Positions 1,086 to 22,223 of a stretch of DNA of 22,614 nucleotides are shown piece after piece. The notes under the pieces were generated by a model that was given only the letters and a program-made list of their open reading frames with translations, was not told the DNA's origin and ran no database searches. The translations under genes were made by a program, and so were the position numbers. Source of the stretch: Nitrososphaerota archaeon (GTDB taxonomy: Archaea > Thermoproteota > Nitrososphaeria > Nitrososphaerales > CADDZS01); the NCBI GenBank assembly GCA_021325255.1, contig JAJPHP010000068.1, forward strand, positions 1 through 22,614, in the 5' to 3' direction. Each line of letters opens with the position of its first letter. The first letter of the stretch is position 1.

Positions 1086-1193
1086 TGGGCTCGGAGGGAC
1101 TTGAACCCACGACCCCCGCCGTTTTCTTGAGGAGCTACCTGAAATCATTCCCCCAGTCAGAGCGGTGTCCTAACCAAGCTAGACGACGAGCCC
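1086..1193 (-). tRNA. tRNA-Val(GAC) with an intron
   Basis: On the minus strand GGGCTCG (1-7) pairs with CGAGCCC (66-72), followed by A73 and no encoded CCA. The D arm has stem GTCT/GGAC. The T arm is GTGGG-TTCAAGT-CCCTC with one T-T mismatch. The anticodon stem CCGCT/GGCGG is interrupted by about 33 bases (1122-1154). Placing the break at the canonical 37/38 position gives anticodon GAC, and the overall sequence resembles archaeal tRNA-Val. The intron can form GGGGA/TCCTC as its inner helix. The exact splice points were not proven by a full bulge-helix-bulge fold. A TATA-like TTTATGCAAA lies about 20 bases upstream of the mature 5' end. Confidence 0.85.
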
Positions 1194-5236: not shown

Positions 5237-5350
5237 TGGACTGGAGGGGATTTGAACCCCTGACCTCCCGCGTTCTCTAAAACGCCTACGTACAGTTGGA
5301 GAATGGCATTTCGTGCGAGGCGGGCGTTACTACCGCTGAACTACCAGCCC
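5237..5350 (-). tRNA. tRNA-Ala(CGC) with a 41-base intron
   Basis: On the minus strand GGGCTGG pairs with CCAGTCC (one G-T wobble), followed by A73 and no CCA. The T arm AGGGG-TTCAAAT-CCCCT is perfect. The anticodon stem is CCCGC/GCGGG with loop CT-CGC-A and C38. The intron occupies 5273-5313, between positions 37 and 38. It contains a 7-bp inner helix, AAATGCC/GGCGTTT, as expected for a bulge-helix-bulge substrate of the archaeal splicing endonuclease. Confidence 0.9.
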
Positions 5351-5819: not shown

Positions 5820-5943
5820 GGGCCGGTAGCTCAGCATGGACAGCCACTGATAAGTTCACTAATGGTGGTGCACTTAGAGCGCGTGACTGATAACTCTATA
5901 GTTAGAGATCACGAGGTCGCCGGTTCAAATCCGGTCCGGCCCA
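5820..5943 (+). tRNA. tRNA-Ile(GAT) with two introns, one in the D-loop
   Basis: GGGCCGG pairs with CCGGCCC, followed by A73 and no CCA. The T arm GCCGG-TTCAAAT-CCGGT is perfect. The anticodon stem CGTGA/TCACG encloses CT-GAT-A. A 15-base intron (5893-5907, with inner helix CTCT/AGAG) sits at 37/38. A second insertion of about 34 bases (near 5840-5873) interrupts the D-loop between AGCATGG and TTA, inside the otherwise perfect GCTC/GAGC D stem; it can form GCCAC/GTGGT. Removing both gives a normal tRNA-Ile. The exact D-loop splice points are ambiguous by one or two bases. An integrase begins 48 bases downstream, so the 3' end is the likely attachment site. Confidence 0.88.
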
Positions 5944-5991: not shown

Positions 5992-7368
5992 ATGCAAAGG
6001 CATTTGCCAACAAATTTCAAGGACTATTCCAAACAAGAGTACGGCGAATTCCTTCAAGATCCCAATGTCAAGCGCTGGTACAACAACCTCTCAAAGTCGA
6101 GTGTAATTGTCGCCGATATCTATCTGCGAAGACTTGGCAGCTTCTGCAAGAAACTGAGTGTTACTCCATCTCAATTCTCACGGTTTAGCCTCCGAAGAAT
6201 GGAGGATATGGCCCAGGACTATATCGATGAATTTGAGAAAAGAAAGAACCCCGAAACCGGACGACAGTATGCACCGGGATATGTCGACTCTAATCTCAAA
6301 GCAATCAAAAGCTGGGCTGAATGGAACAGGAAAAAGTTTCAGCGAAGGATCAAGATCTCGAACGTAAGCAAAACGCCTACACTTGAAAATGAACGAATTC
6401 CAACACAAAAGGAGCTTGCCCGAGTTCTCTACGCTGAATCCACACCTCTTCGAACTCGAGTCAGCATAGCTCTGATGGCGTTTGCCGGTCCGAGACTTGA
6501 AGTTCAGGGTGATTATCTAGGGCTCGAAGGACTGAGAATCAAGGATTTTCCTGAGCTCAAATTGTCAAAGGACGAAGCGAAATTCGCAGTAGTCCCTACG
6601 ATAATTATTGTTCGAGAGGAGTTAAGCAAGTCCAGACATCAATATTTCACATTCCTTGCGGATGAAGGCTGCGAAATTCTAAAGCAGTATCTGGAAAGAA
6701 GATTGTCCGAAGGCGAAGATCTTTCCGAAAACTCTCCGATAATTTCAAGCAGCAAATCGCAACAAAAGAAGATCAGCAGTGTAAAGATCCCTGACGCTTC
6801 TCCAGTCCTCCGCACCACAAAGATAGGGAACGACATTAGAACAGCCATGCGAGCAGTGGATCTTCCCTGGCGGCCATACGTATTCAGAAGTTACTTTGAC
6901 ACCAACCTTATGCTAGCAGAAAGCAAGGGGCTCGTAACTCATGCATATCAACAGTTTTGGATGGGGCATACTGGTGACATTGAAGCAAGGTATACCACGA
7001 GAAAACACACACTGCCTCAGGAAATGGTTGAGGATATGAGAAAATCGTACGAGAAGGTTGCAAACCAGTTCCTGGAAACTTCAACGAACAAGAAATCTCC
7101 CTCGGCTGACGAGATCAAAAGGATGCACCAAGAATCTTTACTTTCACTCGCTGGATGTACCAAGGAGCAGATAGACAAGATGGATCTTGAACACATGTCG
7201 AATGAAGAAGTTCAACGCAAGGCAAGGGAGATATTCTTTGGCATAAATACAAACAAGGGCCAAAGAGTTGCAGTTCAAGTTCCAGAAGTTGACGGGCTTC
7301 TCGCAAAGGGATACAAAGCGGAGCATAATCTCCCGGATGGCAGAGTCGTCATGATGCCCCCGTTCTAG
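5992..7368 (+). CDS. Tyrosine recombinase (integrase), Thaumarchaeota type
   Basis: A 458-aa site-specific DNA recombinase that would integrate or excise a mobile element. Residues 10-125 form a SAM-like core-binding domain and residues 135-345 the catalytic domain. Visible active-site residues: R168 (in FAGPRLE), a probable K213, R299 in a Y-V-F-R-S-Y motif (Tyr replaces the usual His of HxxR), H326 in W-M-G-H, and the nucleophile Y334 in E-A-R-Y. About 120 residues follow the tyrosine; the ending KGYKAEHNLPDGRVVMMPP matches the tail seen in thaumarchaeal integrases. The ATG at 5992 is the first good start. It lies 48 bases after the tRNA-Ile 3' end and reads away from it, so the tRNA is the probable target. 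The gene is intact, unlike SSV-type integrases that are split on insertion. Confidence 0.92.
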   Translation: MQRHLPTNFKDYSKQEYGEFLQDPNVKRWYNNLSKSSVIVADIYLRRLGSFCKKLSVTPSQFSRFSLRRMEDMAQDYIDEFEKRKNPETGRQYAPGYVDSNLKAIKSWAEWNRKKFQRRIKISNVSKTPTLENERIPTQKELARVLYAESTPLRTRVSIALMAFAGPRLEVQGDYLGLEGLRIKDFPELKLSKDEAKFAVVPTIIIVREELSKSRHQYFTFLADEGCEILKQYLERRLSEGEDLSENSPIISSSKSQQKKISSVKIPDASPVLRTTKIGNDIRTAMRAVDLPWRPYVFRSYFDTNLMLAESKGLVTHAYQQFWMGHTGDIEARYTTRKHTLPQEMVEDMRKSYEKVANQFLETSTNKKSPSADEIKRMHQESLLSLAGCTKEQIDKMDLEHMSNEEVQRKAREIFFGINTNKGQRVAVQVPEVDGLLAKGYKAEHNLPDGRVVMMPPF

Positions 7369-7455: not shown

Positions 7456-10400
7456 GTGAACTGTCTCAAAAGCGCACTTGAATCGAGTTTGGACATTTTC
7501 TACGAAGGCGATGGTAACAAAATAGCGAAAACTTTCTACATTCCCGTACTCAAGCAATCCTCGAGCTACAAGCGCGTTTCAGGATACTTCAGCCTCGATA
7601 GCTTGGTGGTTGTTGCAACCGGACTTGCGGGCTTGATTAAAAATGACGGAAAAATGAATCTCGTCCTTGGGGCACACGATGTCGGGAAAGATCTGAATGA
7701 AGCCTACCTCTTGAGTAGAGATAGGGCTCAAGATCTGCTCAAGGATATCGGAGAGAGAATTTCTTCAGGTCTTGAGAGGATCGAGGACATTCTAGTCAGA
7801 AGAAGAATTGAAGCTATTGCTTGGATGCTTGCAAATGGAACATTGGAAATCAGGGTGGCAATTCCCAAGAGAACGTACCTTGGTCTGGGCAATGGAATAT
7901 TTCATGAAAAGGTTCTAGTGTTCGACGATCAAAACGGATGTACAGTTGCAGCAGCGGGGAGTGCGAACGAAACACTCGCAGCTTACAGTGTGAACGGTGA
8001 AAACCTCACTGTTCACATGTCTTGGAAGGAAGGTCATCAAGAGTATCTTGAGAGATACAAAAGCAAGTTTGAGAGCCTGTGGTCTGACACTCATCCAGAT
8101 TACTATGTGCTTCCACTTCCCGAAGCTCTCGAAACCAAACTGAAGGAGAGGTTCTACCCAGATTCGAGGCCCGAGTTCGATCCTCTGGAGCAGAAGGAAG
8201 TCGTACAATTCGAACTGATGCCGGATCGGGACACATGCGCAAGGTTGGTGCCAGTGGCAAAACTAGTGAAGGAGCTGGGCCGGATCAGAGGCTTTGCCCA
8301 GCTAGGACTAGGTCCCGTCAGGCTGTATCCTCATCAGATCTTCACAGTTGATTTTGCGCTGGGCAGATTTCCTCACAGAGTCCTACTTGCAGATGAGGTC
8401 GGGCTGGGCAAGACACTGGAGGCTGGAGCGATAATCAAGAGACTCATAGACATGAAGGGAGTTCAAAGGATTCTGATACTCTCTCCAAGAAATGTGGCAA
8501 GACAATGGCTGGATGAACTCTGGATTCATTTTGGGTTGAGATTCTGGTTTTTCGAGCCCGCATCCAAGAGCTATATATCTGCGGATGGCTCTTCGACAGA
8601 TCTTGGAAAGGAAAACCCCTTTGACAGAAACGGCATTGATTTCATGATATGTTCCTGGCACTATGCGCGGGGTACCAAGAGGAGGCCCTCGGAACTGATG
8701 CAGGCTACAAAGTACTTCGATCTTGTCATAGTGGACGAGGCACACAATGCGAGGATGAAGCGTGAATCAAGTGGTAAGGTCATTCCTACTAGGTTGAATG
8801 AGCTCTGCAACTGGCTGGGGGTAACAAGCCCAAACATGATACTCTTGACTGCAACGCCTGTTCAGCTTCGTTCAGTCGAAGCACTTGACCTGCTAAGGAT
8901 ACTTGGATTGGGAGGGCCTTGGGTTCATGAAAGCGATTTCGAAAAGTACTATGAAATAATAACTAAACAAAACGAGGAAATAGACAACGATGAGTGGCTC
9001 TTCGCATTCGAGTTGGCGGGTTGGATCGCGAAAAATTACCTTTCAGAGAAAGAAACATCGAAGATCCTCTCGAAGATCTTCAAAGACGAGGAATCTGCCT
9101 ACAGTCTTTCGCAAGCAATTACTCGCGAGAGAATCACTTTGCAGAATATTCAGACGCTGAGCCGAAAGCATTCCCCTTCTTCTCTGAAACAGTTTCTTCT
9201 CGCCTTCAGCCCTGTTCAATGGTTTATGGTCAGGAATACGAGAGAGAATCTTGAAAAGCTTGGTTATGTGTTTCCAAATCGAGTTCTTGATGAAGTTCCC
9301 GTGGAACTAGAACGAAAACATTCAGAAATCCTAGATAAGCTTGATGAGTACCTGTCGAACCACTACGCAAAATACGAAAGATATCTCTCTCCTGAGAACA
9401 AGGGTGTCTTAGGATTTGTAAAGTCGGTATATCATCAAAGGTTCGTCAGCTCGTTTTCCTCAGCTTATCTTACTGTCAGAGACAGAAGGTTGTTTCTCGA
9501 AGCGCTGCTGGAAGGAGATAGAGATGCACTCCTTCGAGTAGCTTCCAAGCTTTTCGTTGAGGAAGAGTGGGAGGAAGACGAAGAACGACTCATTGAATCG
9601 ATGGAAGAAGCTTTGGACAAAGGCGCAAGGAGCCTGATACTTTCGGAATTAAAGTTTCTCAGAGATCTAGAGTCGGCTCTCCAAAAGTATGATCCTCAGA
9701 TCTTGAGTGGAGATGATCCGAAACTCAAAAAACTCGTCGAGGTAGTCGATGGCCTTGTCTCAAAAGGACACAAGGTCCTGACATTCAGCAAGTACACGGA
9801 TACTGTGGACGCAGTTGTGAAATTCCTAGGCCGGAATAGCTCTAGCCTGACCAAAAGCGAAATTGGTATTTACACTGGCGAAGGAGGAAAAGTGTTCGAT
9901 CTCGATCAAAATAGATACATTTTGGTGGGAAAGGAAGAAGTGAGAAGGGCATTAGAGACTGGGCCTCTCAAGATACTAATCTGCAGCGATGCCGCAAGCG
10001 AAGGCCTCAACTTGCAGTCGGCGAGCGCAGTGGTCAATGTTGACATGCCTTGGAACCCAGCAAGAGTCGAGCAAAGAGTGGGAAGAGCTGACAGGCTTGG
10101 CCAGAAAGCAGCAGAGGTTCTTGTGAAAAATGTATGGTATCCTGAATCAATTGAGGCGCAAATGTACAAGGCTCTTTTTGATAGGAAGGAGATCTACAAA
10201 CTTGTGGTCGGACCTGCCCAAGAGATCTTCAGCGAGGCAATGCGCAGAGCATTGGATACCAATGCAACCGGAGCAGAACTTAGAAAAATAGTTTCGGACA
10301 CCTTCGATACTCTGCACCGAATAAAGGAGGAAGTAACAAAGACCGCGGGGTCTCTTTCTGGGCAAGGATTTCAGGGCGGACATTACCAAGATAATGAAGT

Positions 10401-10791
10401 GATAGATAGAATCCTAAGTTTTGCGAAGAGTGCCTCAAAAGCACTTGGTTACTCAGTATCCACCAGGGATAACCTATTCAATATTGAAGATGAAGGTGTC
10501 CACCCGAAGCTACCCAAAGACCTAGCGCTGTGGAATTCTGCAAGCTTGGAAGAGGGTAGACCAAATGCCCTGACACCGGCCAATCCTATAGTGCAATTCC
10601 TAGCTGACAGAGTGATTGCGGAAGGGGCCGGAATCAGCAAAATGCAACACAGGAAAAGCGTGTATCTTATCAGCGGATTCGACGGGCTCGCAGAGATCGC
10701 CACGATAGAGGGCGATTCCAAGGTAGCCGAAGTCTTGCAAGCTCCAAAAGTGTTTGACCTTTTGGATGAGATGTTGCGGGAGGCGAGCTAG
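7456..10791 (+). CDS. PLD-family nuclease fused to SNF2/DEAH helicase (predicted defence helicase)
   Basis: A 1111-aa fusion. Residues 1-215 are a phospholipase-D-like nuclease domain with a single H-E-K signature (H150, K152, in GIFHEKVLVF) followed by a G-S-A-N-E motif near 168-172; such domains dimerise to make one active site. Residues 290-930 are a superfamily 2 SNF2/RapA-like motor: Walker A A-D-E-V-G-L-G-K-T (312-320), D-E-A-H (427-430), L-T-A-T-P (464-468), motif V S-D-A-A-S-E-G-L-N (about 843) and motif VI Q-R-V-G-R-A-D-R (about 872). It likely translocates on DNA and cuts it. The start is GTG at 7456. Its TAG stop abuts the ATG of the next gene, so the two are one operon. The same architecture occurs beside DUF1156 methylases and DUF499 ATPases in defence islands. 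Confidence 0.9.
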   Translation: MNCLKSALESSLDIFYEGDGNKIAKTFYIPVLKQSSSYKRVSGYFSLDSLVVVATGLAGLIKNDGKMNLVLGAHDVGKDLNEAYLLSRDRAQDLLKDIGERISSGLERIEDILVRRRIEAIAWMLANGTLEIRVAIPKRTYLGLGNGIFHEKVLVFDDQNGCTVAAAGSANETLAAYSVNGENLTVHMSWKEGHQEYLERYKSKFESLWSDTHPDYYVLPLPEALETKLKERFYPDSRPEFDPLEQKEVVQFELMPDRDTCARLVPVAKLVKELGRIRGFAQLGLGPVRLYPHQIFTVDFALGRFPHRVLLADEVGLGKTLEAGAIIKRLIDMKGVQRILILSPRNVARQWLDELWIHFGLRFWFFEPASKSYISADGSSTDLGKENPFDRNGIDFMICSWHYARGTKRRPSELMQATKYFDLVIVDEAHNARMKRESSGKVIPTRLNELCNWLGVTSPNMILLTATPVQLRSVEALDLLRILGLGGPWVHESDFEKYYEIITKQNEEIDNDEWLFAFELAGWIAKNYLSEKETSKILSKIFKDEESAYSLSQAITRERITLQNIQTLSRKHSPSSLKQFLLAFSPVQWFMVRNTRENLEKLGYVFPNRVLDEVPVELERKHSEILDKLDEYLSNHYAKYERYLSPENKGVLGFVKSVYHQRFVSSFSSAYLTVRDRRLFLEALLEGDRDALLRVASKLFVEEEWEEDEERLIESMEEALDKGARSLILSELKFLRDLESALQKYDPQILSGDDPKLKKLVEVVDGLVSKGHKVLTFSKYTDTVDAVVKFLGRNSSSLTKSEIGIYTGEGGKVFDLDQNRYILVGKEEVRRALETGPLKILICSDAASEGLNLQSASAVVNVDMPWNPARVEQRVGRADRLGQKAAEVLVKNVWYPESIEAQMYKALFDRKEIYKLVVGPAQEIFSEAMRRALDTNATGAELRKIVSDTFDTLHRIKEEVTKTAGSLSGQGFQGGHYQDNEVIDRILSFAKSASKALGYSVSTRDNLFNIEDEGVHPKLPKDLALWNSASLEEGRPNALTPANPIVQFLADRVIAEGAGISKMQHRKSVYLISGFDGLAEIATIEGDSKVAEVLQAPKVFDLLDEMLREAS
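7989..8017. repeat. 12-bp inverted repeat inside the helicase gene
   Basis: TGTGAACGGTGA and TCACTGTTCACA are complementary over 12 positions with one G-T pair, separated by AAACC. The repeat lies over codons ~178-187, just after the PLD motif. As RNA it would be a stable hairpin; as DNA it resembles an operator. It may be chance. Confidence 0.5.
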
Positions 10792-11328
10792 ATGAATGAA
10801 ATGAGTTGCGAGTGTACCAAACTCATTGATAATTTGATCACTAGAAACAGGAGAGATGCCAAGCAGGTCGGCTTTCAATTTAGGAACAGCCTCGATGCTT
10901 TCAAATCTGGAATCGTTGAAGGAGCTAAAGAGCTGATTGCCAGGCATCTGTATCGGTCCGGGGTGTACCAGGCAAGTCTTGACTCTAGCTTGAGCCGACA
11001 TTTCGATCCATTGAAAATACTCTCCAGTTTAGAAAAAAGAGTCTCTAAATCGGAACCTGATATCTACAGCTTCTTTCTTCAAAACAAACAAAGAGTGGAA
11101 GAACAAAGTCAGGGTGTAGACATTGACAAACTTCTGAGAGGAGTCCTCAAAAACAAGGAGAGCTCAAAGGGGCTGCTTGAGGGCAATGTTCTTCGGGAAT
11201 TAGCTCAGGTGAAACTGCTCATTGAACGAATGGAGAGGCTCGACAAGTATCTTGCTTCTTGGAGAGAATCGATACGAATGGAAGGAACTGTTGAAATGAA
11301 AGTGATAGTGGACATCCATTCGCCCTAA
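10792..11328 (+). CDS. Hypothetical 178-aa partner of the PLD-helicase
   Basis: The ATG follows the helicase stop codon with no gap, which implies translational coupling and a stoichiometric partner. The protein is mostly alpha-helical and highly charged. Residues 1-55 hold an amphipathic region, and residues ~125-165 form a leucine-patterned, coiled-coil-like segment (LRELAQVKLLIERMERLDKY). No membrane segment, no clear zinc site (only C7 and C9 near the N-terminus) and no catalytic motif is visible. I do not recognise the family. From its position I infer an adaptor or regulatory subunit of the helicase/methylase/ATPase module. It ends 7 bases from the stop of the convergent methylase gene. 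Confidence 0.75.
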   Translation: MNEMSCECTKLIDNLITRNRRDAKQVGFQFRNSLDAFKSGIVEGAKELIARHLYRSGVYQASLDSSLSRHFDPLKILSSLEKRVSKSEPDIYSFFLQNKQRVEEQSQGVDIDKLLRGVLKNKESSKGLLEGNVLRELAQVKLLIERMERLDKYLASWRESIRMEGTVEMKVIVDIHSP

Positions 11329-11335
11329 AAGGCAT

Positions 11336-14131
11336 TTACAGATAATGAGTCAGGCTCTCCCCAGTTTTGCGCGTTGCTTCTGGATTATGACCTAGGCTCT
11401 CAATCAGAGCGTTAGCAGTCCTGCTCTCGTCGACCAGAGACTTTGCAGCACCTCCATTCATTCCCAGTTGGGCTATGACCCTAAGTACTCCTAGGAAACC
11501 AGAGTCCGAAGAGTCTCTTCCAGTTTCAACAAGGAGGTTTTTCACGGCTTGCAATCCCATCTTCTCATAGACCACCAAGGCCGCCTGCACCACATCTATC
11601 AGCGTTCTAAGAGTTTCAGGTTTGTTGATCCTGATGCTTCCCCTTTCGACTCTTTGGAGGGCGGAGAGGACGGTGATCTTGTTTCCCTTTTTCTCGACCA
11701 GGCCTCGTCCTCCTTTTACATCGAGTGAATCGAGGCTTATGTTTCCTCCAAATACTGTCGCTATTCTCGCCAGATCATACTCCGCCTGAAGGTATGGAAA
11801 GTTTCTAAGCAAATTCAGATATGCAAGTGTTTCGAAATCTGCGGATGGAATGTCAGCAGTCAGAAACCTGTTCACGACTTCAGCTACGATTTTGAGCGCG
11901 TCTTCTGGCCCTTTTATCTGACCTGTCGCGTCTTTCACTGTGGAGTAGTCGGCGAATTTTCCCAGGACTGGGCCGTAGGTGCTCACAATGAGGTCGGGTC
12001 CTGAAATTCCAAGAGCGCTGTGCTCTTTCACTTTTTTCTCTGCTTCGTCGTATAGTTCTCGATTTACTTCCTCCCACAGTCCTCTTTTTTCAACTAGTCT
12101 CTTTTTGCATGCGAGCAAAACAGTAACCTTCAATACACCCTTCTCTTTCTTCCCGAACTTTTCTCCAGGTTCTGTTAGAACAGGCCATGAAGCTGTGAAT
12201 GTGAAACCTGCTCTGATCAATGAGGTTGCAAGACCCGCCCAGGCCTCAGCTTTCCTGTGAGTGAACATCACTGTGAGCCTTCCATCATCGCGTAAGACCC
12301 GGTTCATTTCCTTGAAGCCGGCCTCCATCTTTGACTGGTAATGCTGATCTGCTAGCTTCTTTGCGCTACCAGATCCGATATCCTTGAAGAGGGAACTGTT
12401 TGCAACGGCTTCTTCTGTTGTGTCTGTAAGCTCTGATTTGAACGCTTGCGGGAACACGTCTCCAAGCGTTCGCTTCATCCAGACATAGAAGAAGTTCATT
12501 ACCTCGCCGTACATCACATTTTCAGCGTACGGTGGGTCGACGACTATGCACTCAATGCTCTTGTCAGGAATATCCCTCATGTTGGCGGCATCGCCTGAGA
12601 GTATTCGAGGGGTTTGCCTTTCGGCTGGAAGGAGCTTGATTAACTCGGTCAGGGCATCGATTGTTTTGTTTGTAGCCCACGGCCACAACATTGTAGGATG
12701 ATCCCATTCGGCGTAGCTTGTTTTGAACGGGAAGCCTTGGAGGCCCATTGCATGCGCAACTGTGGCCCGATTGACACTCCACAGACTGAGTAAACAATTA
12801 TTGTCAATACATCGATCAAAAACCATTACAAAATATACAACCACTGCCTCTGCAAATTCGTATTCTGGAGTGCCTTCCTTCAACCCCTCAAAGAGACCTT
12901 TCTTTAACTCGGAAAGTTTTTCAAGATAGGTCAAGTGAACTAGGAGCTGGCGAGGATTGAATAGATCGCACCAGCGTTCCATTCCATATTGTAATGGGCG
13001 AGTATCAAAATAAATCTCAGGAAACTTTTCCACTGGAACTAATCCTGATTGATTCCATCTCTCTAGTTTCTCTTTCAGTCTTTGCTCGGCTCTCCCGACA
13101 GCTTCGATCTCCTCCTTTTTCGGAACACGGAAATACCACTTCATCGACCTGCCAGAAGAAGGAATCTTAGAGCACACCGCATAGAGCTGGTGGCCCATCC
13201 TTTGCGCTCTTGCCTCAGTCTTTACACAATCCCCTCCGTTGACCTTTCCACAATTAATACACTTGGCGTCCTTTCCTACATCTGTTCCCTCGTCAGGATC
13301 GAACCCGCGCTCTTTTGGGTTTTCAATTATTTCGAATGTGCAGCTCATTCTGTCTTTGAAAAGTACAGGCTTCGCAGCTATCTTTTCAGAATCTGTTCTT
13401 ACGATCCACCAGTTTGGAGATAGTGGGATCATTGTTCCACAATGCTCGCATCGAATTGTCCGACTCCAGAGGTAGGCATACACTTTCTCACCCTGAACTT
13501 TTGGAAAGAATTCCTCAAGTTCTTTCTTAGCCGATTCGTGAACTTTGAGACAGAATTCTTTAACCGCTGGAATCAGTTTTTCTCCAAATTTAGATGGGTA
13601 TTCCAGCGTCGCTCTGAGGATAACATACGAAACAGGATTGAGGTCGCTTGCGATAGCTGGTAGACCGAGTCTTACAGCTTCGTAAGGGACACTGCCTCCT
13701 CCTGCCATCGGATCTAGTACTGTTGGAAGCTTGCCTCCCCACGATGAGAGTGCCTGCTCCTTTAGCCAAGCCAGCTCCTGATCAGAGGGAACATGTTTGA
13801 AAGCCCGGCCCCATGAAAACGGATTACTCGCAAGCTTCTTCTTTTGCGACTTCCCCTCTAGCACAATTTTCAAAGCTCCACTCATATCCTTATCGAGAGG
13901 CATACCAAGAAGTCTCAGAAACTTTTTTTTATCTCCCTTTGAGGGAATAATTGAACCAGAAATCGTTGCACGGCAACTCGTCAACGGGCGACGCGCAAAC
14001 CATACGTGGAGGCTGTTAACGCCCGGAACCTGACTTGTGCTCCTCTCGCGCACACTCTCGATTCCTACTTCCGTAATTGGAAACCAGTCATCGATCAATG
14101 CGTCCCTTTGTTTCGTTAGATCTTCCTGCAA
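11336..14131 (-). CDS. DUF1156 adenine-specific DNA methylase with Zn-ribbon (COG1743 type)
   Basis: A 931-aa SAM-dependent DNA N6-adenine methyltransferase. The N-terminus shows the DUF1156 signature W-F-P-I-T-E-V-G, then S-L-H-V-W-F-A-R-R-P-L (residues 40-50). The SAM-binding motif I is D-P-M-A-G-G-G-S (140-147), with D-L-N-P at 163-166; the catalytic motif is D-P-P-Y (532-535). Between them lies a ~370-residue insert with C-E-H-C (228-231) and C-I-N-C (291-294), which form a zinc ribbon probably used in DNA recognition. The C-terminal 250 residues are helical. The expected role is modification of host DNA so that the linked helicase/nuclease spares it. The start is TTG at 14131; a second TTG at residue 12 (before I-D-D-W-F-P) would also preserve the conserved domain. 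It diverges from the DUF499 gene and converges with 10792-11328. Confidence 0.92.
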   Translation of the reverse strand: MQEDLTKQRDALIDDWFPITEVGIESVRERSTSQVPGVNSLHVWFARRPLTSCRATISGSIIPSKGDKKKFLRLLGMPLDKDMSGALKIVLEGKSQKKKLASNPFSWGRAFKHVPSDQELAWLKEQALSSWGGKLPTVLDPMAGGGSVPYEAVRLGLPAIASDLNPVSYVILRATLEYPSKFGEKLIPAVKEFCLKVHESAKKELEEFFPKVQGEKVYAYLWSRTIRCEHCGTMIPLSPNWWIVRTDSEKIAAKPVLFKDRMSCTFEIIENPKERGFDPDEGTDVGKDAKCINCGKVNGGDCVKTEARAQRMGHQLYAVCSKIPSSGRSMKWYFRVPKKEEIEAVGRAEQRLKEKLERWNQSGLVPVEKFPEIYFDTRPLQYGMERWCDLFNPRQLLVHLTYLEKLSELKKGLFEGLKEGTPEYEFAEAVVVYFVMVFDRCIDNNCLLSLWSVNRATVAHAMGLQGFPFKTSYAEWDHPTMLWPWATNKTIDALTELIKLLPAERQTPRILSGDAANMRDIPDKSIECIVVDPPYAENVMYGEVMNFFYVWMKRTLGDVFPQAFKSELTDTTEEAVANSSLFKDIGSGSAKKLADQHYQSKMEAGFKEMNRVLRDDGRLTVMFTHRKAEAWAGLATSLIRAGFTFTASWPVLTEPGEKFGKKEKGVLKVTVLLACKKRLVEKRGLWEEVNRELYDEAEKKVKEHSALGISGPDLIVSTYGPVLGKFADYSTVKDATGQIKGPEDALKIVAEVVNRFLTADIPSADFETLAYLNLLRNFPYLQAEYDLARIATVFGGNISLDSLDVKGGRGLVEKKGNKITVLSALQRVERGSIRINKPETLRTLIDVVQAALVVYEKMGLQAVKNLLVETGRDSSDSGFLGVLRVIAQLGMNGGAAKSLVDESRTANALIESLGHNPEATRKTGESLTHYL

Positions 14132-14207
14132 AAGTGCTCGACGTAGCTAATCCTAGGAACGATCAGTACTTATTTATTAGCCAAGAAACGCTGGTTTTCA
14201 CACGCTC
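14132..14207. promoter_or_regulatory. Divergent promoter region of the methylase and the DUF499 ATPase
   Basis: The 76 bases between the two divergent start codons contain one A/T-rich core, ACTTATTTATTAG (14168-14180), which reads as a TATA-like box on both strands. It lies about 30-40 bases from each start. Shared or competing transcription of modification and motor genes is inferred. No clear operator palindrome is visible. Confidence 0.45.
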
Positions 14208-17165
14208 ATGTCATCTAATCCTATTCCGATATGGCGTGAAGAAGCTTGCATTCCAAGAAGGGAGGTCATCGAAGGTACTCTTACTGACGCGGAGCTTGCT
14301 CTAAGCCTATCTGCTGTGGCCTGGGGGAGAGCAAAATCTCCGTACAACGATCCGGTTGCATTTTTCCAATCTACTCATCTGACCAGCAGTATGAAGACAA
14401 TCGTTGAAAGTGTTCTTGGAAGGCTATCGAGGTCAAGAACTGACGTCAACCCAATCATGGTTTTGGACGTTGGGTTCGGTGGAGGAAAGACCCACACACT
14501 CGTCACGATATTTTACGCTGCAAAACATCCACTGGAAGCCCAAAAATATCTTCTCAAAGACCTGAAGCAACCGACAAAAGTGAAAGTCGTGGCCATTTCA
14601 GGGGATGAATATGGAAGTGAGGGTGTCGAGCGTGATGGAGTGAAAATTAAAACAATCTGGGGTGACCTATTCTGGCAGCTAGGCGTCTATCAAAAGTTTT
14701 CAAAACTTGACAAAGATGCGCTGATTCCCAGCCTTGACGACATCCGAACCGCCATCAGAGGAAATCCAACGCTCGTACTGATAGACGAGCTTCCCACGTA
14801 TTTCAAATTACTCGCTTCAGAGGGGAGTGTCGACAAGGCGGTACAATTCATACAGAGACTCGTCATCGCGGTTTCTGAAATAGAGGATGCGGCTCTGCTG
14901 CTTGCGATAGCTGAAGATGTGTACAAGTCTGAAGCTGATCGTGCACGTAAAGCAATAAGCGAGGCAGTCGAAGAAGCAGTGGCTGAGACGAGAGCGCACA
15001 TAAGAAGAAAAGAAACCGTTCTCGTCCCAGTAGCCGAAGAGGATGTCGTTCACATCCTGAAACGCAGGCTTTTTGAAAAGATATCTGAAGTTCAAGCGGT
15101 CACCACCTCTGATGCATATCATCAATTATATTCCAGATTGGCAGTCCCGGATAAGTGGAAGAGTAGTGAATTCAAGAATTCAATTCAAGAAAACTACCCG
15201 TTCCATCCCGAGCTAATCAGAGTCCTCTACGAAAGAGTTTCAACGATAGACAAGTTCAACAGGACTAGAGGCGCAATCAGACTACTTTCTAGAGTAATTA
15301 GAAGAGTCTGGAAAGAGAAAGAAGGCGATGCTCTTCTCGTTCATCCATTTCACGTTGATCTTGCGGATCAGGGAATTTTGGATGACCTAACGACGGGCCT
15401 TGGAGAGGAGAGGAGAAGAAATGCCGCGGAAGCAGATATCTGGAGCAGCAAAGGAGGGGCGACGGCGCAAGAATTAGATAATCAGTCGCAAGCACACTGG
15501 GGCGCTCCCCTAGTAAGAAGAGCTTGCAATACGATCTACCTTTACAGTCTGGCCGCTGGAAGAGAAGGCGCTCAGGGGATAGCTTCGGAAGCGCTTACAG
15601 ATCTATGCACAACACCGCAGAGACCGGATCACTATATGCGAATCAGGGATACCGTCCTGACATTTCTGCTCGACTCATTCCAGTTCATCGATAGAAGGGG
15701 AGAGAGATACGTATTCGTAAAAGAGCCAACCCCCAGCAGAGTAATAGAACAGCTATCTAGAGATATAACCGAGGACGAGAGCCTAAAAACGATCAGCGAG
15801 AAACTTGGAGAACTTTACTCAGGAGACCCCGAATGGCTATCCGTTGAGTTGTTCCCTTCAAACCCTGCAAAAATTCCCGACCAGCCGTATTGCGTTCTGG
15901 CAATATTGAACCCTAGTCTGCACACCGCTCAGTCAGGAGCAAGAAAGCCATCAGATGACGTTGCAAAGTTTCTCATATACAAAGACGAATCCGGAAAGAA
16001 ACTGCGCCAGTTTTTCAATTCCACTTTCTTACTTGTTGCATCTTCTGATAGACTGGAGTCTTTGAGACTGGCGGCCAGGAGACTGAAAGCGGCAAGGATG
16101 GTTCAGGAAGATCTTCTCAAATTCAACATTCCAAAAGACAGGAAATCAGATGTGGCAGAATACGAGGCAAGGCAGGAGAAGAATGTCAATGATTACCTTA
16201 GAGCTGCTTTCTGCAACTTGGTATATTTTGAGCGGCAGGGGCCATCGATCAAGACAATAAGCTCGAATGGGTATGGAAGCGCAAAGGGTGGCAAGGAAGT
16301 AATAGCTCACCAGCTTGTAAACGTGGTAAACAGAGTCAAGGAGGAAGCTCTAGATCCATCTTATGTGTTTGAGTACGCGTGGCCAAAGGGTGCCGGGAAG
16401 ATATCGGTAAAGTCGATGTATGAGCAATTTAATTCGGTCCCAGGCCTCATAATTCCATCAACGAAGGAAATTTTCCAGAAGACAGTCAAGCGGGGATTGG
16501 ATGAGGGAAGCTGGATTTTGAAACTTGGAGATACAACATTTACGCACGAGAAGCTCCCCACAGTGATTCCTATTGATGAAAAGTCAGAACTTCACACGCT
16601 GGCGGAGGCTGAAAAGATCGGTTTGCTCAAACAGCAAGAAACAAAGATTGCAGTATTTGAACAAAGTTCTGCGCCCGGCGCGAGACAGGAATTCATCAAT
16701 AGTCTGGTGCTCGCCGATGCCCCATTGGAAGCCTTGGCAGATGACCTCGCTAAGAGGGGGAGAAGAGACAAGTTCGACCACATAAGCACTATAACATTGA
16801 AAATGAGCGAAGCTGACCAGATGAATTTAATCAACATAAAAAATCTCTTTACGCGATTGTTTCCAGAAAAAGATATTTCTGCAAGACTTGAAGCAACATT
16901 GCAAAGGCCCCGTCTGCCTAAATTTACACTCACAATAGATGTTACAAAGGAAGATACGTCTCAGGAGGAAGGCAAAAATCTCTTCGACGTCGCATGGAAG
17001 CTAAAAGGAACTGAGTATTGTGATATGACCCTGATTTTGGAATGGGAGAATGGTTCAACGCCAGAACAGGTTGCCGATTTGATAAGGAGCCTTGCGAAGG
17101 ATTCAAAAAATCACATCGTTGCAAGCCTTGAAGCTAGAGTTGGAAGGAAAGGAGCTCCGTCTTAA
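14208..17165 (+). CDS. DUF499 AAA-type ATPase (COG1483 type), predicted defence component
   Basis: A 985-aa P-loop ATPase. Residues 1-85 carry the DUF499 lead-in (LALSLSAVAWG, Y-N-D-P-V-A-F-F). Walker A is G-F-G-G-G-K-T-H-T (89-97), Walker B is V-L-I-D-E-L-P-T-Y (190-198), and an arginine-rich sensor-like segment (FNRTRGAIRLLSRVIRRVW) follows near residue 350-370. Residues 500-985 are helical, charged, and end in repeats that may hold winged-helix-like folds. COG1483 proteins are regularly encoded with DUF1156 methylases and large helicases in prokaryotic defence islands. The biochemical role is unknown, but DNA-dependent ATPase or assembly motor is the usual inference. The ATG at 14208 fits the domain start. 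Its TAA stop overlaps the ATG of the next gene (TAATG). Confidence 0.9.
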   Translation: MSSNPIPIWREEACIPRREVIEGTLTDAELALSLSAVAWGRAKSPYNDPVAFFQSTHLTSSMKTIVESVLGRLSRSRTDVNPIMVLDVGFGGGKTHTLVTIFYAAKHPLEAQKYLLKDLKQPTKVKVVAISGDEYGSEGVERDGVKIKTIWGDLFWQLGVYQKFSKLDKDALIPSLDDIRTAIRGNPTLVLIDELPTYFKLLASEGSVDKAVQFIQRLVIAVSEIEDAALLLAIAEDVYKSEADRARKAISEAVEEAVAETRAHIRRKETVLVPVAEEDVVHILKRRLFEKISEVQAVTTSDAYHQLYSRLAVPDKWKSSEFKNSIQENYPFHPELIRVLYERVSTIDKFNRTRGAIRLLSRVIRRVWKEKEGDALLVHPFHVDLADQGILDDLTTGLGEERRRNAAEADIWSSKGGATAQELDNQSQAHWGAPLVRRACNTIYLYSLAAGREGAQGIASEALTDLCTTPQRPDHYMRIRDTVLTFLLDSFQFIDRRGERYVFVKEPTPSRVIEQLSRDITEDESLKTISEKLGELYSGDPEWLSVELFPSNPAKIPDQPYCVLAILNPSLHTAQSGARKPSDDVAKFLIYKDESGKKLRQFFNSTFLLVASSDRLESLRLAARRLKAARMVQEDLLKFNIPKDRKSDVAEYEARQEKNVNDYLRAAFCNLVYFERQGPSIKTISSNGYGSAKGGKEVIAHQLVNVVNRVKEEALDPSYVFEYAWPKGAGKISVKSMYEQFNSVPGLIIPSTKEIFQKTVKRGLDEGSWILKLGDTTFTHEKLPTVIPIDEKSELHTLAEAEKIGLLKQQETKIAVFEQSSAPGARQEFINSLVLADAPLEALADDLAKRGRRDKFDHISTITLKMSEADQMNLINIKNLFTRLFPEKDISARLEATLQRPRLPKFTLTIDVTKEDTSQEEGKNLFDVAWKLKGTEYCDMTLILEWENGSTPEQVADLIRSLAKDSKNHIVASLEARVGRKGAPS

Positions 17166-17620
17166 TGCCCTATAGATACGTTCTCAAATGGACTCGGGGG
17201 TTTCGCGAAAGAATACGTGTTGAGGCGTGGCCTAAGACAATCGACGTGGCTCTTGAGAGCGAAGTAAGAAAACCTTCGTTTCTAATAGGTAAACTCGAAG
17301 GTTCTCGTGCTATCATGCTAAGACAGCTCATAGAAGACGCAATAAGATCCTATGGTTCAAGGCAGAGACAGCTGAGTATCAGAGTTGATTTCCCAAGGGA
17401 CGATGTTCAGGCGATCGCTGTTGCATACAGATTGGGACTCCTCGCAGCAGTGCTTTCGGAGATTAAAGATGAAGAGAGCCTTGAACACGCATATGAGTAT
17501 TTGATGAGGGCCACTCAGGAAGAAATTTGGTTCTGGGCGAGCAAGATGCTCGGTGTCATAGATCAGATTCCGAAGAAGAACAATGTTGTGAAGGCGCTAG
17601 CAGTATTGGCGCGCCCATGA
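17165..17620 (+). CDS. Hypothetical 151-aa partner of the DUF499 ATPase
   Basis: The ATG overlaps the last base of the DUF499 stop, so translation is coupled. Residues 1-55 suggest beta strands with many Arg/Trp/Lys; residues 60-85 and 95-150 are amphipathic helices (ATQEEIWFWASKMLGVI). No catalytic motif, zinc site or membrane segment is visible. It is short for an enzyme and basic, which would suit a nucleic-acid-binding or adaptor subunit of the ATPase; that role is inferred from position only. I do not recognise the family. Confidence 0.75.
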   Translation: MPYRYVLKWTRGFRERIRVEAWPKTIDVALESEVRKPSFLIGKLEGSRAIMLRQLIEDAIRSYGSRQRQLSIRVDFPRDDVQAIAVAYRLGLLAAVLSEIKDEESLEHAYEYLMRATQEEIWFWASKMLGVIDQIPKKNNVVKALAVLARP

Positions 17621-17942: not shown

Positions 17943-18506
17943 TTGACCAAAAAGATAGTCGTTGGTGGTCCTCCGAGATCTGGAAAGAGTACCTTTGTTG
18001 CGAGCATGAGGAGAGCGCTTCTGGACATTGGAGTGCGAGCCGATTATGTCGAGCTCGATCCATATGCTTCCACGCTCGCCCTGCTAGAAGGACTGATGAC
18101 ACCAGAAGAAAGGCTCAGGAGCAAAAGAAAGGATATTTCGAATGAAGAAATCTTGCAGGTTGCTGAAAGATTAGCCAGTGTTGCGGAAAGTGTCGACATA
18201 TTGCTTGGCGATCTACCTGGCATGATAACAGAGCAAACAAGGATGTTATGTAGATATGCCACACATGCAATAATAATCTGCAGTGATCAGAGTCCAGAGC
18301 AAATGAGCGAATGGCACAAATTCTTCGAGGAACTGCGTATCCCAGTGATTGCGAAGATTGTTTCCAAACTTCATGGGAATGAAGAAGTTAAATCGACAAA
18401 TCGCGATACGACCGAAGCAGTGTTGATCGGTTTGGATAGAGAAGTTAAGGTCGGCGATACTCTAACCAGAATTGCAATCATGCTGGAAACAATTATGAAT
18501 CTGTGA
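17943..18506 (+). CDS. Small P-loop NTPase (187 aa)
   Basis: The Walker A motif lies at the very N-terminus: G-G-P-P-R-S-G-K-S-T (residues 8-17). A D-L-P-G-M motif after a hydrophobic strand (about residues 83-92) looks like a Walker B/switch region of SIMIBI or kinase-like P-loop proteins, and the strand A-I-I-I-C-S-D follows. The lysine-first ParA signature is absent, so it is not a classical ParA. The G-G-P-P-x-S-G-K-S lead reminds me of AAA/kinase-like domains attached to CRISPR-accessory Csx3 proteins, but no Csx3 domain or CRISPR locus is present, so this is only a resemblance. The start is TTG at 17943, fixed by an upstream TGA. It converges with the AbrB-like gene, with a 5-base gap between the stops. 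A regulatory or signalling NTPase is the most that can be said. Confidence 0.8.
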   Translation: MTKKIVVGGPPRSGKSTFVASMRRALLDIGVRADYVELDPYASTLALLEGLMTPEERLRSKRKDISNEEILQVAERLASVAESVDILLGDLPGMITEQTRMLCRYATHAIIICSDQSPEQMSEWHKFFEELRIPVIAKIVSKLHGNEEVKSTNRDTTEAVLIGLDREVKVGDTLTRIAIMLETIMNL

Positions 18507-19610: not shown

Positions 19611-22223
19611 ATGAAATTGCAGACGGAAACAGGGATTCCCGAACTAGCCGAGCAGCTCGTAAAAAAGTATGAGTCTCGTCCCGCAGTTCTTGATGGTCTT
19701 CTTCAGCTTGCTGATAATCCAACAAGTATGAGCGCCGGATATGGGATAGAAGAGAATCTTCCTCTCATAAAGTCCAATCTCTCGGCCAGGTACGGAAGCT
19801 CCGAAAACATAGAAGAGATTTTTCAAACGTTAGTTCGCGAAAAAAATAGGATCATGACCGAAGCAAGAACGGAAATCTATTCCGCAGAGGCAGCTCTAAG
19901 AGACGCCCTTCAAAATTCTCCGGTTCTAGAAGACCATTTCATTAATCGCGTAAAATCACTGTCTGTTATCGAAAAGCAAGTAGTAAGTGGCCTTTCTCAA
20001 CTGGATCTTGAGAAGACCTTCACGGTCATGACAGCGTCCCCCATAGCGCAAAGTTGGGGTGGGAAAATGTTGATAGCTTATGTGTTGGCTCTCGGGATGG
20101 ATATTCCGGCCCATGAAATTGAGCCCATACTAATCAAGTCTGGTTTTGCTAATCGATTAAAATGGATAAGTTCTGGCGGGGGGCACAACATAACACAGCC
20201 GCTGGTCATTCCATATTATGTCAAGAGGAAAAAGGCGGAACTAGCATCACTTTCCTCGCCTGTCTCAAAAGACCTCACTGAGATCCTAAATAATTTGGTT
20301 TCAAAGAACGGTTACTCTGAACTAGCGGCCCTCGATGAAGTATCTGAATTAGGCGGCATTGTTCAACAACGTCCCGATTTGGAGGGCCTTCCTGCATGGA
20401 AGGGCATCATTGGAAAATACGAAGGTTCTGTCGCAATATCCCCGTTATTGCAGGGTCGGCTCAAAAATGAGCTAGATCGAATCAAAAGTGAGCTAACAAC
20501 CAAGTTTAGAAATAAGCTGGCTTCGGTTATGGCAGTCCTGAAAGACAAGCACTGGCCACAAATGGAGTTCACCCATGTTCAAAACGGAGAAGATTATTGG
20601 AGAATAGAAGCTGGACTGGGAAGGCCCGTTATCAATGTTGTATGCTCTCCTTGGCTGACTCCGAACATTATGCGACTTTCTGGTGGCTCAACTATTCAGT
20701 TAGTAGCCATTCTGACAAACCAGAGTTTTCCTCGTGCTGAATCAATGATATACAGAATGCGCCAAAGCAGCGGGACTACGATCGCGGGTGCGAGTATAGA
20801 AAAAGTCGATTACAAGAAGCTCAGCAATGACGTAGATTCATTCGTCGATGAAATATTCGCTACACTCAAACAACTCTTGGCGCTAAAGCCAGAGGCAAGT
20901 TCAACACAACCTCTCCCTCGTCCTGAAGCCTCTGAAAAAGCCCCTAAGAAATTACCACCGAAGGAACCAATGACGGAATTCCAAATGCATGTTCCGCCTG
21001 GGGACATTATGCTGGGAAGTAGTACGCTTTCTACAAAACAGTGGGGAGTCTTGGGCAAGACGAGTGAAGGAAAGAATGTTAATTTTGATCTCAATGCTCC
21101 ACACATCCTTTTCGTTTGCGGGAAAATGGGATCAGGTAAGGGCTACACAATAGGTGTTCTTTCGGAGATGTTGTGTCGTGAATCTGTCCCGAACATTTCC
21201 AGCGTTGAAAGGCCTGCTACGATAGTAGTACTCTACAAACCCAAAGAAGACAAGAGATCAGAGTTCTGGAGCATTAGATACCCTAATGATGTTCCAAGTG
21301 AGGTTGAGAGCCTCAGAGATGTGTACGGCGTAGTACCGTCTAAATTACTAGATGATAGTAAGTTCAAAGTATTCCTTGATCCGGGGGTCTATCAGAAAGC
21401 GGCCGATTTGTTCAAGGGAGATTATGGAACTCAGAACGTCTATCCCCTTTATGTTGACCCATCTGATCTGACGGGGGAGGAATGGGCAATTGTGCTTTCT
21501 GCCGGAGGAAAAACAGACCAGCTTTACGTGAAACAGCTATTCCAGATTATAGAGGATAGGCAATTCCAGCCCTTCGATATCAATACAATAAAATCGGATG
21601 TGTTGAACAATGAAATGCTTACTCAGGCCCAGCAAAGGCTCGCGCTTACCCGTTTGAAGATTTTACAAAACTATCTTCAGATAGGAAAAGGAGAGCAAGA
21701 TTTTGTAAGTAATCTTGCAATCGGGGGAGTCAACATTATCGATTTTAGAAAGACAATCAGAACTCCCGATGATGTATTTTCAGTGATGACATTGATTCTG
21801 AGTAGGTTACAAACAAAGAAAGGACTAGAGAACGAACCTTTTGTCTTTGTAATCAACGAAGCTCATGACTATTTCAAAGGAGATGTCTCCAAAGATTTCG
21901 TCGAGAGCATTGAATATCTCATAAGAAGAAAAAGACACGGTGCAAATTGGCTGATGTTAGATACCCACTTCCCTGACGACGTAGATGAAAAGGTGATCAA
22001 ATTGGCAGATGTGAAAATGGTAAATTTCCTCGATGTTACCGTCAATAGCAGGATCTTGAACGACGCTTTCAAAGGCAGGTCAGACGAATTCTCCAAATTG
22101 AAAGTGGGAGAAACTCTGATCTGTGCTGACGATTCTTCATTGGGAAAGAATGTCCCATTAAAAGTTCAAGTAAGACCCCGCTTGACAAAACATGGGGCAC
22201 CTACAAAAACTGCAATAAGTTAG
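19611..22223 (+). CDS. HerA/FtsK-like ATPase with large unknown N-terminal region
   Basis: An 870-aa protein. Residues 1-420 have no motif I recognise (helical, ending in a mixed alpha/beta segment with GGSTIQLVAIL). Residues ~430-460 are a Pro/Lys/Glu-rich linker. Residues ~490-850 form a P-loop ATPase of HerA/FtsK style: Walker A G-K-M-G-S-G-K-G-Y-T (about 504-513), Walker B F-V-F-V-I-N-E-A-H-D (about 743-752), and a late arginine-containing segment (NSRILNDAFKGRSDEF). The residue after the Walker A lysine is Gly instead of Ser/Thr, and Asn precedes the Walker B Glu where Asp is usual; both are odd. HerA-type motors pump or translocate DNA and are frequent in defence systems paired with nucleases. 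No nuclease gene is adjacent, but the N-terminal region could carry another activity. It has its own promoter and is not in the DUF499 operon. Confidence 0.82.
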   Translation: MKLQTETGIPELAEQLVKKYESRPAVLDGLLQLADNPTSMSAGYGIEENLPLIKSNLSARYGSSENIEEIFQTLVREKNRIMTEARTEIYSAEAALRDALQNSPVLEDHFINRVKSLSVIEKQVVSGLSQLDLEKTFTVMTASPIAQSWGGKMLIAYVLALGMDIPAHEIEPILIKSGFANRLKWISSGGGHNITQPLVIPYYVKRKKAELASLSSPVSKDLTEILNNLVSKNGYSELAALDEVSELGGIVQQRPDLEGLPAWKGIIGKYEGSVAISPLLQGRLKNELDRIKSELTTKFRNKLASVMAVLKDKHWPQMEFTHVQNGEDYWRIEAGLGRPVINVVCSPWLTPNIMRLSGGSTIQLVAILTNQSFPRAESMIYRMRQSSGTTIAGASIEKVDYKKLSNDVDSFVDEIFATLKQLLALKPEASSTQPLPRPEASEKAPKKLPPKEPMTEFQMHVPPGDIMLGSSTLSTKQWGVLGKTSEGKNVNFDLNAPHILFVCGKMGSGKGYTIGVLSEMLCRESVPNISSVERPATIVVLYKPKEDKRSEFWSIRYPNDVPSEVESLRDVYGVVPSKLLDDSKFKVFLDPGVYQKAADLFKGDYGTQNVYPLYVDPSDLTGEEWAIVLSAGGKTDQLYVKQLFQIIEDRQFQPFDINTIKSDVLNNEMLTQAQQRLALTRLKILQNYLQIGKGEQDFVSNLAIGGVNIIDFRKTIRTPDDVFSVMTLILSRLQTKKGLENEPFVFVINEAHDYFKGDVSKDFVESIEYLIRRKRHGANWLMLDTHFPDDVDEKVIKLADVKMVNFLDVTVNSRILNDAFKGRSDEFSKLKVGETLICADDSSLGKNVPLKVQVRPRLTKHGAPTKTAIS

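What the first reader, a model, noticed from the sequence alone, without database searches (positions are those of the whole stretch)
7456..17620. Five-gene helicase / methylase / ATPase module in an archaeal integrative element
Seen: a PLD-SNF2 fusion, a Zn-ribbon DUF1156 methylase and a DUF499 ATPase lie together with two coupled small genes, downstream of a tRNA-targeting integrase. Established: COG1743, COG1483 and PLD-helicases co-occur in defence islands; I believe this trio is the set named Hma. Inference: the PLD domain is the nuclease, the methylase protects self DNA, and the two small proteins are constant subunits. The archaeal version with the methylase on the opposite strand may be a distinct subtype.
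Basis: partly seen in the sequence, partly recalled or inferred. Interest (0 to 1): 0.75.

Follow-up and report, generated by a model that had tools for sequence, protein, structure and literature searches.

The report
Archaeal five-gene DNA-methylation defence module
This is an archaeal version of a known class of restriction-like gene clusters thought to fight viruses; it carries two small genes that the passages I could read do not mention, one of which also accompanies the relatives examined here that have the same kind of nuclease.

Summary
All five genes are present at the stated coordinates: a PLD–SNF2 helicase, a 178-aa helical protein, a DUF1156 methyltransferase (minus strand), a DUF499 ATPase, and a 151-aa DUF7680 protein. 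The three large proteins keep their catalytic motifs and belong to a published class (Hma / DUF499-centred BREX-related systems). The locus is not the Hma form: its helicase is the PLD form of Type-2 systems, but DUF3780 is absent and DUF7680 takes its place. The same five-gene order, with the inverted methylase, is found in 5 of 5 complete loci of this clade, which is one branch in trees of all three large proteins. Profile comparison and a predicted fold suggest, but do not prove, that the two small families are distant relatives. The 178-aa gene was found only in the archaeal clade. Most likely this is a restriction-like antiviral system that spares methylated self DNA and attacks with a PLD nuclease-translocase; function is untested. 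The integrative element is plausible, not shown. New variant of a known kind.

The parts
7456..10791 (+). PLD-SNF2 helicase, proposed nuclease-translocase effector (1111 aa)
   Evidence: SNF2 63.1 bits, Helicase_C 61.5 bits, PLDc_2 27.4 bits; PADLOC PLD_Helicase 212.9 bits; HxK and GSxNE invariant in 48 of 49 aligned rows, the other being a fragment without letters there
10792..11328 (+). 178-aa all-helical protein, marker of the archaeal clade; unknown family
   Evidence: No family over a cut-off; homologues in 4 of 4 other complete loci of the clade at the same place; AlphaFold2 mean pLDDT 84.7, all helices
11336..14131 (-). DUF1156 amino-methyltransferase with a zinc ribbon (931 aa)
   Evidence: DUF1156 52.1 bits; HmaB 242.7 bits; VVDPPYAE and two CxxC
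14208..17165 (+). DUF499 AAA+ ATPase (985 aa)
   Evidence: DUF499 158.3 bits; HmaC 283.1 bits; GFGGGKTHT and VLIDELP
17165..17620 (+). DUF7680 small subunit, its start overlapping the DUF499 stop (151 aa)
   Evidence: DUF7680 31.0 bits; a homologue within -200 to +400 bases of the DUF499 ORF end in 62 of 118 DUF499-fetched loci; AlphaFold2 mean pLDDT 89.9
5820..5943 (+). tRNA-like gene with two inserts, possible attachment site
   Evidence: Acceptor arms GGGCCGG/CCGGCCC and T-arm read from the sequence; Rfam tRNA 19.9 bits, below the gathering score of 29
5992..7368 (+). probable tyrosine recombinase, weakly supported
   Evidence: Pfam Phage_integrase 14.4 bits, below the cut-off of 27.1; R/GH/Y-like motif read by eye

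Best explanation
The five genes encode a restriction-like antiviral system of the DUF499-centred (BREX-related) class. Inferred mechanism: the DUF1156 enzyme methylates an amino group (most likely N6-adenine) at a motif in host DNA. DUF499, an Orc/Cdc6-like AAA+ protein working with its small partner DUF7680, loads on DNA, reads the methylation state and assembles the effector. The SNF2 motor then travels on unmethylated DNA while its PLD domain cuts it. In this archaeal clade a helical 178-aa protein, encoded directly behind the helicase, serves as helicase adaptor or regulator, and the methylase is transcribed from the opposite strand, so that protection can be set separately from attack. 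Shown: gene content, intact motifs, conserved order, joint inheritance, and the small gene accompanying DUF499. Inferred: every biochemical step.
For: Homologues of the three large proteins form one known class (PMC8565338 passages; PMC12839542 abstract, passages and two sections; PMC7641849 passages). Motifs: helicase GxGKT 37 of 37, DExH 36 of 37, motif VI 34 of 37; methylase [DNS]PP[YFW] 79 of 82; DUF499 GGGKTH 129 of 130; PLD HxK and GSxNE in 48 of 49 rows, the other a fragment. Order HEL+ 178aa+ MT- DUF499+ DUF7680+ in 5 of 5 complete loci (window, L001, L002, L129, L130). That clade is one branch, support 100, in DUF499, helicase and methylase trees. DUF7680 or DUF3780 lies in 40 of 40 PLD-helicase loci, against 3 of 21 non-PLD loci. 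In 194 cyanobacterial genomes, 10 of 10 full-length DUF7680 matches have DUF499 on the same contig.
Against: No functional data were found for this clade. All three window proteins fall far below NCBI's anti-phage equivalog cut-offs (318 of 1100, 232 of 1000, 190 of 1200 bits). Only one HxK motif was seen in the PLD region, so cutting would need a second copy, which is untested. The methylase specificity is unknown, and the zinc-ribbon stretch is not unusually variable within the clade. DUF499 also occurs without DUF7680: 26 of the 37 cyanobacterial genomes with DUF499 have no DUF7680 match. In 14 of the 18 loci counted as having no small gene, an unassigned ORF of 90-330 aa lies behind DUF499, so there 'none' means none recognised. 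The 178-aa protein has no known fold match, so its role is a guess.
Confidence: 0.72

Rival explanations
1. It is simply an Hma (Type-1 BREX-related) system, and the small genes are passengers.
For: HmaB and HmaC are the best PADLOC matches of the methylase and the ATPase.
Against: The helicase is of the PLD branch. The 18 loci with a non-PLD helicase and no recognised small gene all run HEL-MT-DUF499 in one direction, whereas the archaeal clade runs HEL+ MT- DUF499+ in 5 of 5. The small genes are conserved in the clade and DUF7680 far beyond it.
Confidence: 0.07
2. It is a replication- or maintenance-related module of the mobile element (Orc-like ATPase, SNF2 motor, methylase) and not a defence system.
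For: DUF499 is described as homologous to CDC6/ORC1 (PMC7641849 passages); the locus lies near a probable recombinase and a HerA-like gene.
Against: Related loci lie in many unrelated bacteria and archaea. The flanking window genes do not travel with the module: 0 of 7 flanking proteins matched an ORF of the other loci searched, many of which have short flanks. NCBI names proteins of related sets anti-phage, as annotation, not as a test seen here.
Confidence: 0.1
3. A type IV-like system that attacks modified foreign DNA, with the small proteins as modified-base readers and the methylase serving another purpose.
For: PMC12839542 suggests that DUF3780 is a reader of modified bases; PMC7641849 links archaeal DUF499 operons with EVE domains.
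Against: A methylase with its DPPY motif is present in all 5 complete archaeal-clade loci; no reader-domain match was found for the small proteins.
Confidence: 0.11

Closest known systems
Type-2 DUF499-centred BREX-related system (PMC12839542), and NCBI's anti-phage DUF499/DUF3780/DUF1156/phospholipase D set
   Same: PLD (HKD) domain at the start of the SNF2 helicase, DUF1156 methylase, DUF499 ATPase, and a small gene right behind DUF499
   Different: DUF7680 instead of DUF3780; an added 178-aa gene; inverted methylase; different gene order; a branch apart from the sampled DUF3780 loci in three trees
Hma (PMC8565338) / Type-1 BREX-related
   Same: Homologous helicase motor, methylase and ATPase
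   Different: The yardstick helicase L079 has no PLD match and ends in NOV_C; 18 of 21 non-PLD loci have no recognised small gene, and those 18 run HEL-MT-DUF499 in one direction
Archaeal SNF2-nuclease / COG1743 / DUF499 operons noted in PMC7641849
   Same: The same three large components in archaea, including helicases with PLDc nucleases
   Different: The passages seen name neither DUF7680 nor a 178-aa gene
Type-3 BREX
   Same: AAA+ ATPase, N6-methylase and SNF2 helicase are described as homologous (PMC12839542); the window helicase and methylase also match BrxH and PglX models (166.5 and 51.6 bits)
   Different: No PglZ, BrxA, BrxB or BrxL match is listed for the nine window proteins scanned (the helicase list is cut at 25 of 56 families and the methylase list at 25 of 27)

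Membership tests
Hma (Payne 2021) | HmaB-like methylase and HmaC-like ATPase together | tested here: met
   242.7 and 283.1 bits, the best PADLOC matches of the two proteins
Hma (Payne 2021) | helicase of the HmaA family | tested here: not met
   165 bits to HmaA against 212.9 to PLD_Helicase; PLD present. Yardstick L079 scores 697 bits to HmaA. PADLOC's own score threshold was not available here
Hma (Payne 2021) | three-gene operon | tested here: not met
   Five genes on two strands, the same in 5 of 5 complete loci
[quoted passage not shown]
   PLDc_2 at residues 128-209; H, K, G, S, N, E conserved
Type-2 BREX-related (Rakesh and Krishnan 2026) | standalone DUF3780 gene (98% of taxa in the paper) | tested here: not met
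   No DUF3780 match in the nine window proteins scanned; DUF7680 instead. DUF3780 in 1 of 50 genomes holding related loci, 50 of the 80. A distant relation of the two families is suggested, not proven
Type-2 BREX-related (Rakesh and Krishnan 2026) | DUF499 of the published Type-2 clade | tested here: inconclusive
   Window DUF499 lies outside the branch of the 9 DUF3780 loci used as stand-ins (support 100); the published clade itself could not be used, and the tree carries long-branch warnings
NCBIfam anti-phage DUF499/DUF1156/PLD equivalogs | scores over the curated cut-offs | tested here: not met
   190 of 1200, 232 of 1000, 318 of 1100 bits
Type-3 BREX-related | PglZ gene in the locus | tested here: not met
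   No PglZ match listed for the nine window proteins scanned; the helicase is a PLD fusion, whereas Type-3 helicases have no nuclease fusion
Restriction-modification-like function | methylation of self and restriction of unmethylated DNA | not testable with these tools
   No methylation or challenge data

The most novel reading that the evidence does not exclude
All PLD-helicase DUF499 defence systems are four-subunit machines whose DUF7680 or DUF3780 subunit (one family with one slot) couples the AAA+ sensor to the PLD nuclease, and archaea evolved a five-subunit subtype with a metal-binding helical helicase partner and a separately transcribed methylase. The published three-gene description of this class would then be missing an obligate part.
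Probability: 0.45. Interest if true: 0.62.

Novelty: new variant of a known kind. Interest (0 to 1): 0.48.

Why it matters
If right, a widespread antiviral class has a small subunit that the published text I could read does not describe in the DUF7680 branch, and its presence tracks the kind of nuclease the helicase carries. That makes it directly testable whether the small protein controls the PLD nuclease. The archaeal clade gives a compact five-gene set for reconstituting a DUF499 system, whose sensing step is not known.

Tried and rejected
The 178-aa protein as a detached C-terminal domain of the helicase: profile comparison with bacterial and archaeal helicase tails gave probabilities of 0.1-0.8%. 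This is a weak negative, because archaeal and bacterial tails do not align with each other either (0.1-0.2%). Known folds for the two small proteins: no match with E up to 0.001 in the PDB or, for DUF7680, in BFVD. A hypervariable zinc-ribbon recognition stretch: not seen; local dips at other methylase stretches appear in one close pair, L004-L129. Att repeats: none. Viral copies of the 178-aa gene or of the integrase: none found. DUF3780 in the phylum of G048: 0 of 198 genomes, an answer that the tool itself calls uninformative. The phage-defence paper cited as ref. 112 of PMC12839542: not held. The statement that I found DUF7680 in no paper rests (0 papers) and on 0 occurrences in the main text of PMC12839542. 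Supplements could not be opened, so its authors may have counted such loci under another name. The 178-aa protein has no name to search for; (Thaumarchaeota with DUF499) gave 0 papers. The first PLD pattern was too strict (2 of 37) and was replaced by the alignment. The motif-I pattern matched 39 of 82 methylases and is not used.
Full report
WHAT IS THERE. Five ORFs lie at the stated coordinates: helicase 7456-10791 (+), 178 aa 10792-11328 (+), methylase 11336-14131 (-), DUF499 14208-17165 (+), 151 aa 17165-17620 (+). Family searches over nine window proteins give PLD plus SNF2 and Helicase_C, DUF1156, DUF499 and DUF7680; the 178-aa protein matches no family over a cut-off (one Pfam match of 19.4 bits, cut-off 26, is taken as chance). 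A database cluster with 100% identity to the window DUF499 is named as from a Nitrososphaerales archaeon. No whole genome is held for the window.

IS IT MORE THAN CHANCE. Loci were fetched with DUF499 alignments: 80 from genome contigs, the best of 413 confirmed relatives and so leaning towards the window's kin, and 38 from viral contigs. L001 (Thaumarchaeota) and L002 (Methanomicrobiales) carry the same five genes in the same order and strands. L003 and L004 (Bathyarchaeota) are cut off by a contig end in or just past the methylase and show MT- DUF499+ DUF7680+; L005 (Syntrophobacterales), a short contig, shows DUF499+ DUF7680+. A DUF7680 search of 300 genomes of the phylum of G001 matched 5. 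Two of these, fetched as L129 and L130, have the full five-gene order; two are L001 and L003; one (G067, L131) is a 52-aa fragment with no other module gene in the 16 kb fetched. The phylum of G002 gave 1 of 294, L002 itself. So the order is the same in 5 of 5 complete loci, window included, and the module is rare in the archaea sampled. Only 5 other 178-aa homologues were found among 5.8 billion proteins, by a search of limited reach.

SMALL GENE BEHIND DUF499. DUF7680 is not an archaeal oddity. Pfam matches bacterial proteins at the same place strongly, e.g. 159.6 bits in L025 and 101 bits in L013. An iterated profile started from three bacterial seeds finds it within -200 to +400 bases of the DUF499 ORF end in 62 of 118 loci (104 of 118 have at least 600 bases downstream). 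Of 132 loci with DUF499, 61 have a helicase ORF over 2300 bases. Forty of these have a PLD helicase: 29 carry DUF7680 and 8 carry DUF3780 beside DUF499 (within 700 bases or overlapping). The other 3 also carry one: L008 and L062 hold DUF7680 about 7.4-8.1 and 4.5 kb past DUF499, and L137 holds an annotated DUF3780 behind a split DUF499. Of 21 non-PLD loci, 18 carry neither and 3 carry DUF7680 (L026, L027, L039). In 14 of those 18 an unassigned ORF of 90-330 aa lies behind DUF499, so a small gene too diverged to recognise is not excluded. Some loci were chosen by the small gene itself: L129 and L130 by DUF7680, L132-L142 by DUF3780. Without these, 29 of 29 PLD loci (window included) carry DUF7680 in the locus (27 adjacent, 2 distant), against 3 of 21 non-PLD loci. 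In 194 cyanobacterial genomes DUF7680 matches 14 and DUF499 matches 37. All 10 full-length DUF7680 matches have DUF499 on the same contig (9 within 3 kb, one, G1089, at about 9-10 kb); the 4 partial matches do not. 26 of the 37 genomes with DUF499 have no DUF7680 match.

DUF7680 AND DUF3780. DUF3780 is in 1 of 50 genomes holding related loci (50 of the 80 loci's genomes were given), so the two mark different lineages. Yet both sit directly behind DUF499 and before the methylase in bacteria: DUF3780 does so in 6 of the 7 plasmid regions fetched (L136 has no methylase) and in L132-L135. Profile comparison aligns them along most of their length: score 31.5, or 29.6 on trimmed columns, probability 19-25% (55% with another alignment over 105 columns). 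150 column shuffles reached at most 21.4, and the reversed profile 14.6. With smaller alignments the probability was only 4-6%. The DUF7680 model (mean pLDDT 89.9) has five strands, one of them three residues long, and five main helices. PMC12839542 describes DUF3780 as a four-stranded sheet with five helices and says that no definitive homologue was found (passages). I read this as a probable distant relation, not a proof; DUF3780 was not folded here.

THE ARCHAEAL SUBTYPE. In trees of DUF499 (56 rows), helicase and methylase (46 rows each, FastTree), the window clade is one side of a branch with support 100, and the DUF3780 set is another. All three trees are quick ones without bootstrap; the DUF499 and helicase trees carry long-branch warnings. 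The window clade includes one bacterial bin (L005) in the DUF499 tree. In 67 loci with all three large genes the orders are: loci with DUF7680, DUF499+ MT+ HEL+ 34; no small gene recognised, HEL+ MT+ DUF499+ 18; DUF3780, DUF499+ MT+ HEL+ 9; archaeal clade, HEL+ MT- DUF499+ 5; L008, HEL+ MT+ DUF499+ 1. The 178-aa gene was found only in the archaeal clade, in 5 loci of the 132. Its model is all helical, with no PDB match with E up to 0.001. A CxC at its start (in the 7 of 10 rows that have that end) and a DxH at its end (10 of 10) are conserved; a metal site is my guess.

ACTIVE SITES. Helicase GxGKT 37 of 37, DExH 36 of 37, motif VI 34 of 37; methylase [DNS]PP[YFW] 79 of 82; DUF499 GGGKTH 129 of 130. 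PLD HxK and GSxNE are conserved in 48 of 49 rows, the other being a fragment without letters there; the Asp that follows in the window is not conserved in the DUF3780 loci. The DPPY motif is typical of amino-methyltransferases (recalled), and PADLOC names its model a DNA-adenine methylase, although PMC8565338 calls HmaB an m5C enzyme.

COMPARISON WITH WHAT IS KNOWN. PMC8565338 (passages) names Hma, a three-gene operon, as a candidate defence system. PMC12839542 (abstract, passages, sections 29 and 33 and part of the references) groups these systems as Type-1, -2 and -3 BREX-related; Type-2 has the HKD helicase, and DUF3780 in 98% of taxa. PMC7641849 (passages) had already noted archaeal operons of SNF2-nuclease (PD-(D/E)XK or PLDc), COG1743 and DUF499. 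PMC3710099 (passages) noted DUF499 in restriction operons. PMC11705971 (passage) reports Hma in an archaeal provirus. Thus the class is known, also in archaea. What I found in no paper is DUF7680 (0 papers); the 178-aa partner has no name to search for and is not in the passages seen. The window meets the helicase criterion of Type-2 but not the DUF3780 criterion, and it is below all three NCBI equivalog cut-offs. I recall that the DUF3780 set was shown to block phages in a 2020 study by Gao and colleagues; that paper was not seen here, and NCBI product names are the only support.

MECHANISM. The best reading is restriction-like defence as stated in Best explanation. Shown: parts, intact motifs, order, joint inheritance. 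Inferred: methylation of self, sensing by DUF499-DUF7680, cutting by PLD, a helicase partner role for the 178-aa protein.

MOBILE SETTING. A tRNA-like gene (5820-5943) lies just before a probable recombinase (5992-7368); both calls are weak, and no second attachment copy is in the window. The seven flanking proteins tested have no match in the other loci searched, so the module, not its surroundings, is conserved in this sample.

Noticed in passing
window 17943-18506 (+): A small P-loop ATPase matches the Csx3-associated AAA models of PADLOC (79.5 bits), directly downstream of the module; it has no match in the other loci searched.
   Followed up: partly
window 19611-22223 (+): An 870-aa protein with weak HerA / mad8-like matches (mad8 49.4 bits; HerA chain 8wiv E 0.013), perhaps a DNA translocase of the element.
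   Followed up: partly
window 1086-1193 (-) and 5237-5350 (-): Two tRNA genes with long inserts in the anticodon region exceed the Rfam gathering score (45.3 and 50.1 bits against 29) but are missed by ARAGORN.
   Followed up: no
L026 and L027, DUF499 locus: An Ignavibacteria bin and a Methanoperedens bin carry nearly identical DUF499 (end branches 0.014 and 0.025): recent transfer between domains or a binning error. DUF7680 is present beside a non-PLD helicase; that of L026 carries NOV_C.
   Followed up: partly
L005: A Syntrophobacterales bin holds an archaeal-clade DUF499 plus DUF7680: transfer to a bacterium or misbinning.
   Followed up: no
L008 2819-21659: A Sigynarchaeum (Asgard) locus has a PLD helicase ORF of 1437 aa, the order HEL+ MT+ DUF499+, and two DUF7680-like ORFs on opposite strands 7-8 kb past DUF499.
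   Followed up: partly
178-aa family, alignment A6: CxC near the start (7 of the 7 rows that have that end) and DxH at the end (10 of 10) are conserved, a possible metal site joining both ends.
   Followed up: no
methylase, L004 against L129: In this close pair, three 40-residue stretches of the methylase alignment (from window ORF positions 81, 361 and 441) fall to 42-55% identity while the other 21 stretches are 70-100%, perhaps specificity-setting segments.
   Followed up: no
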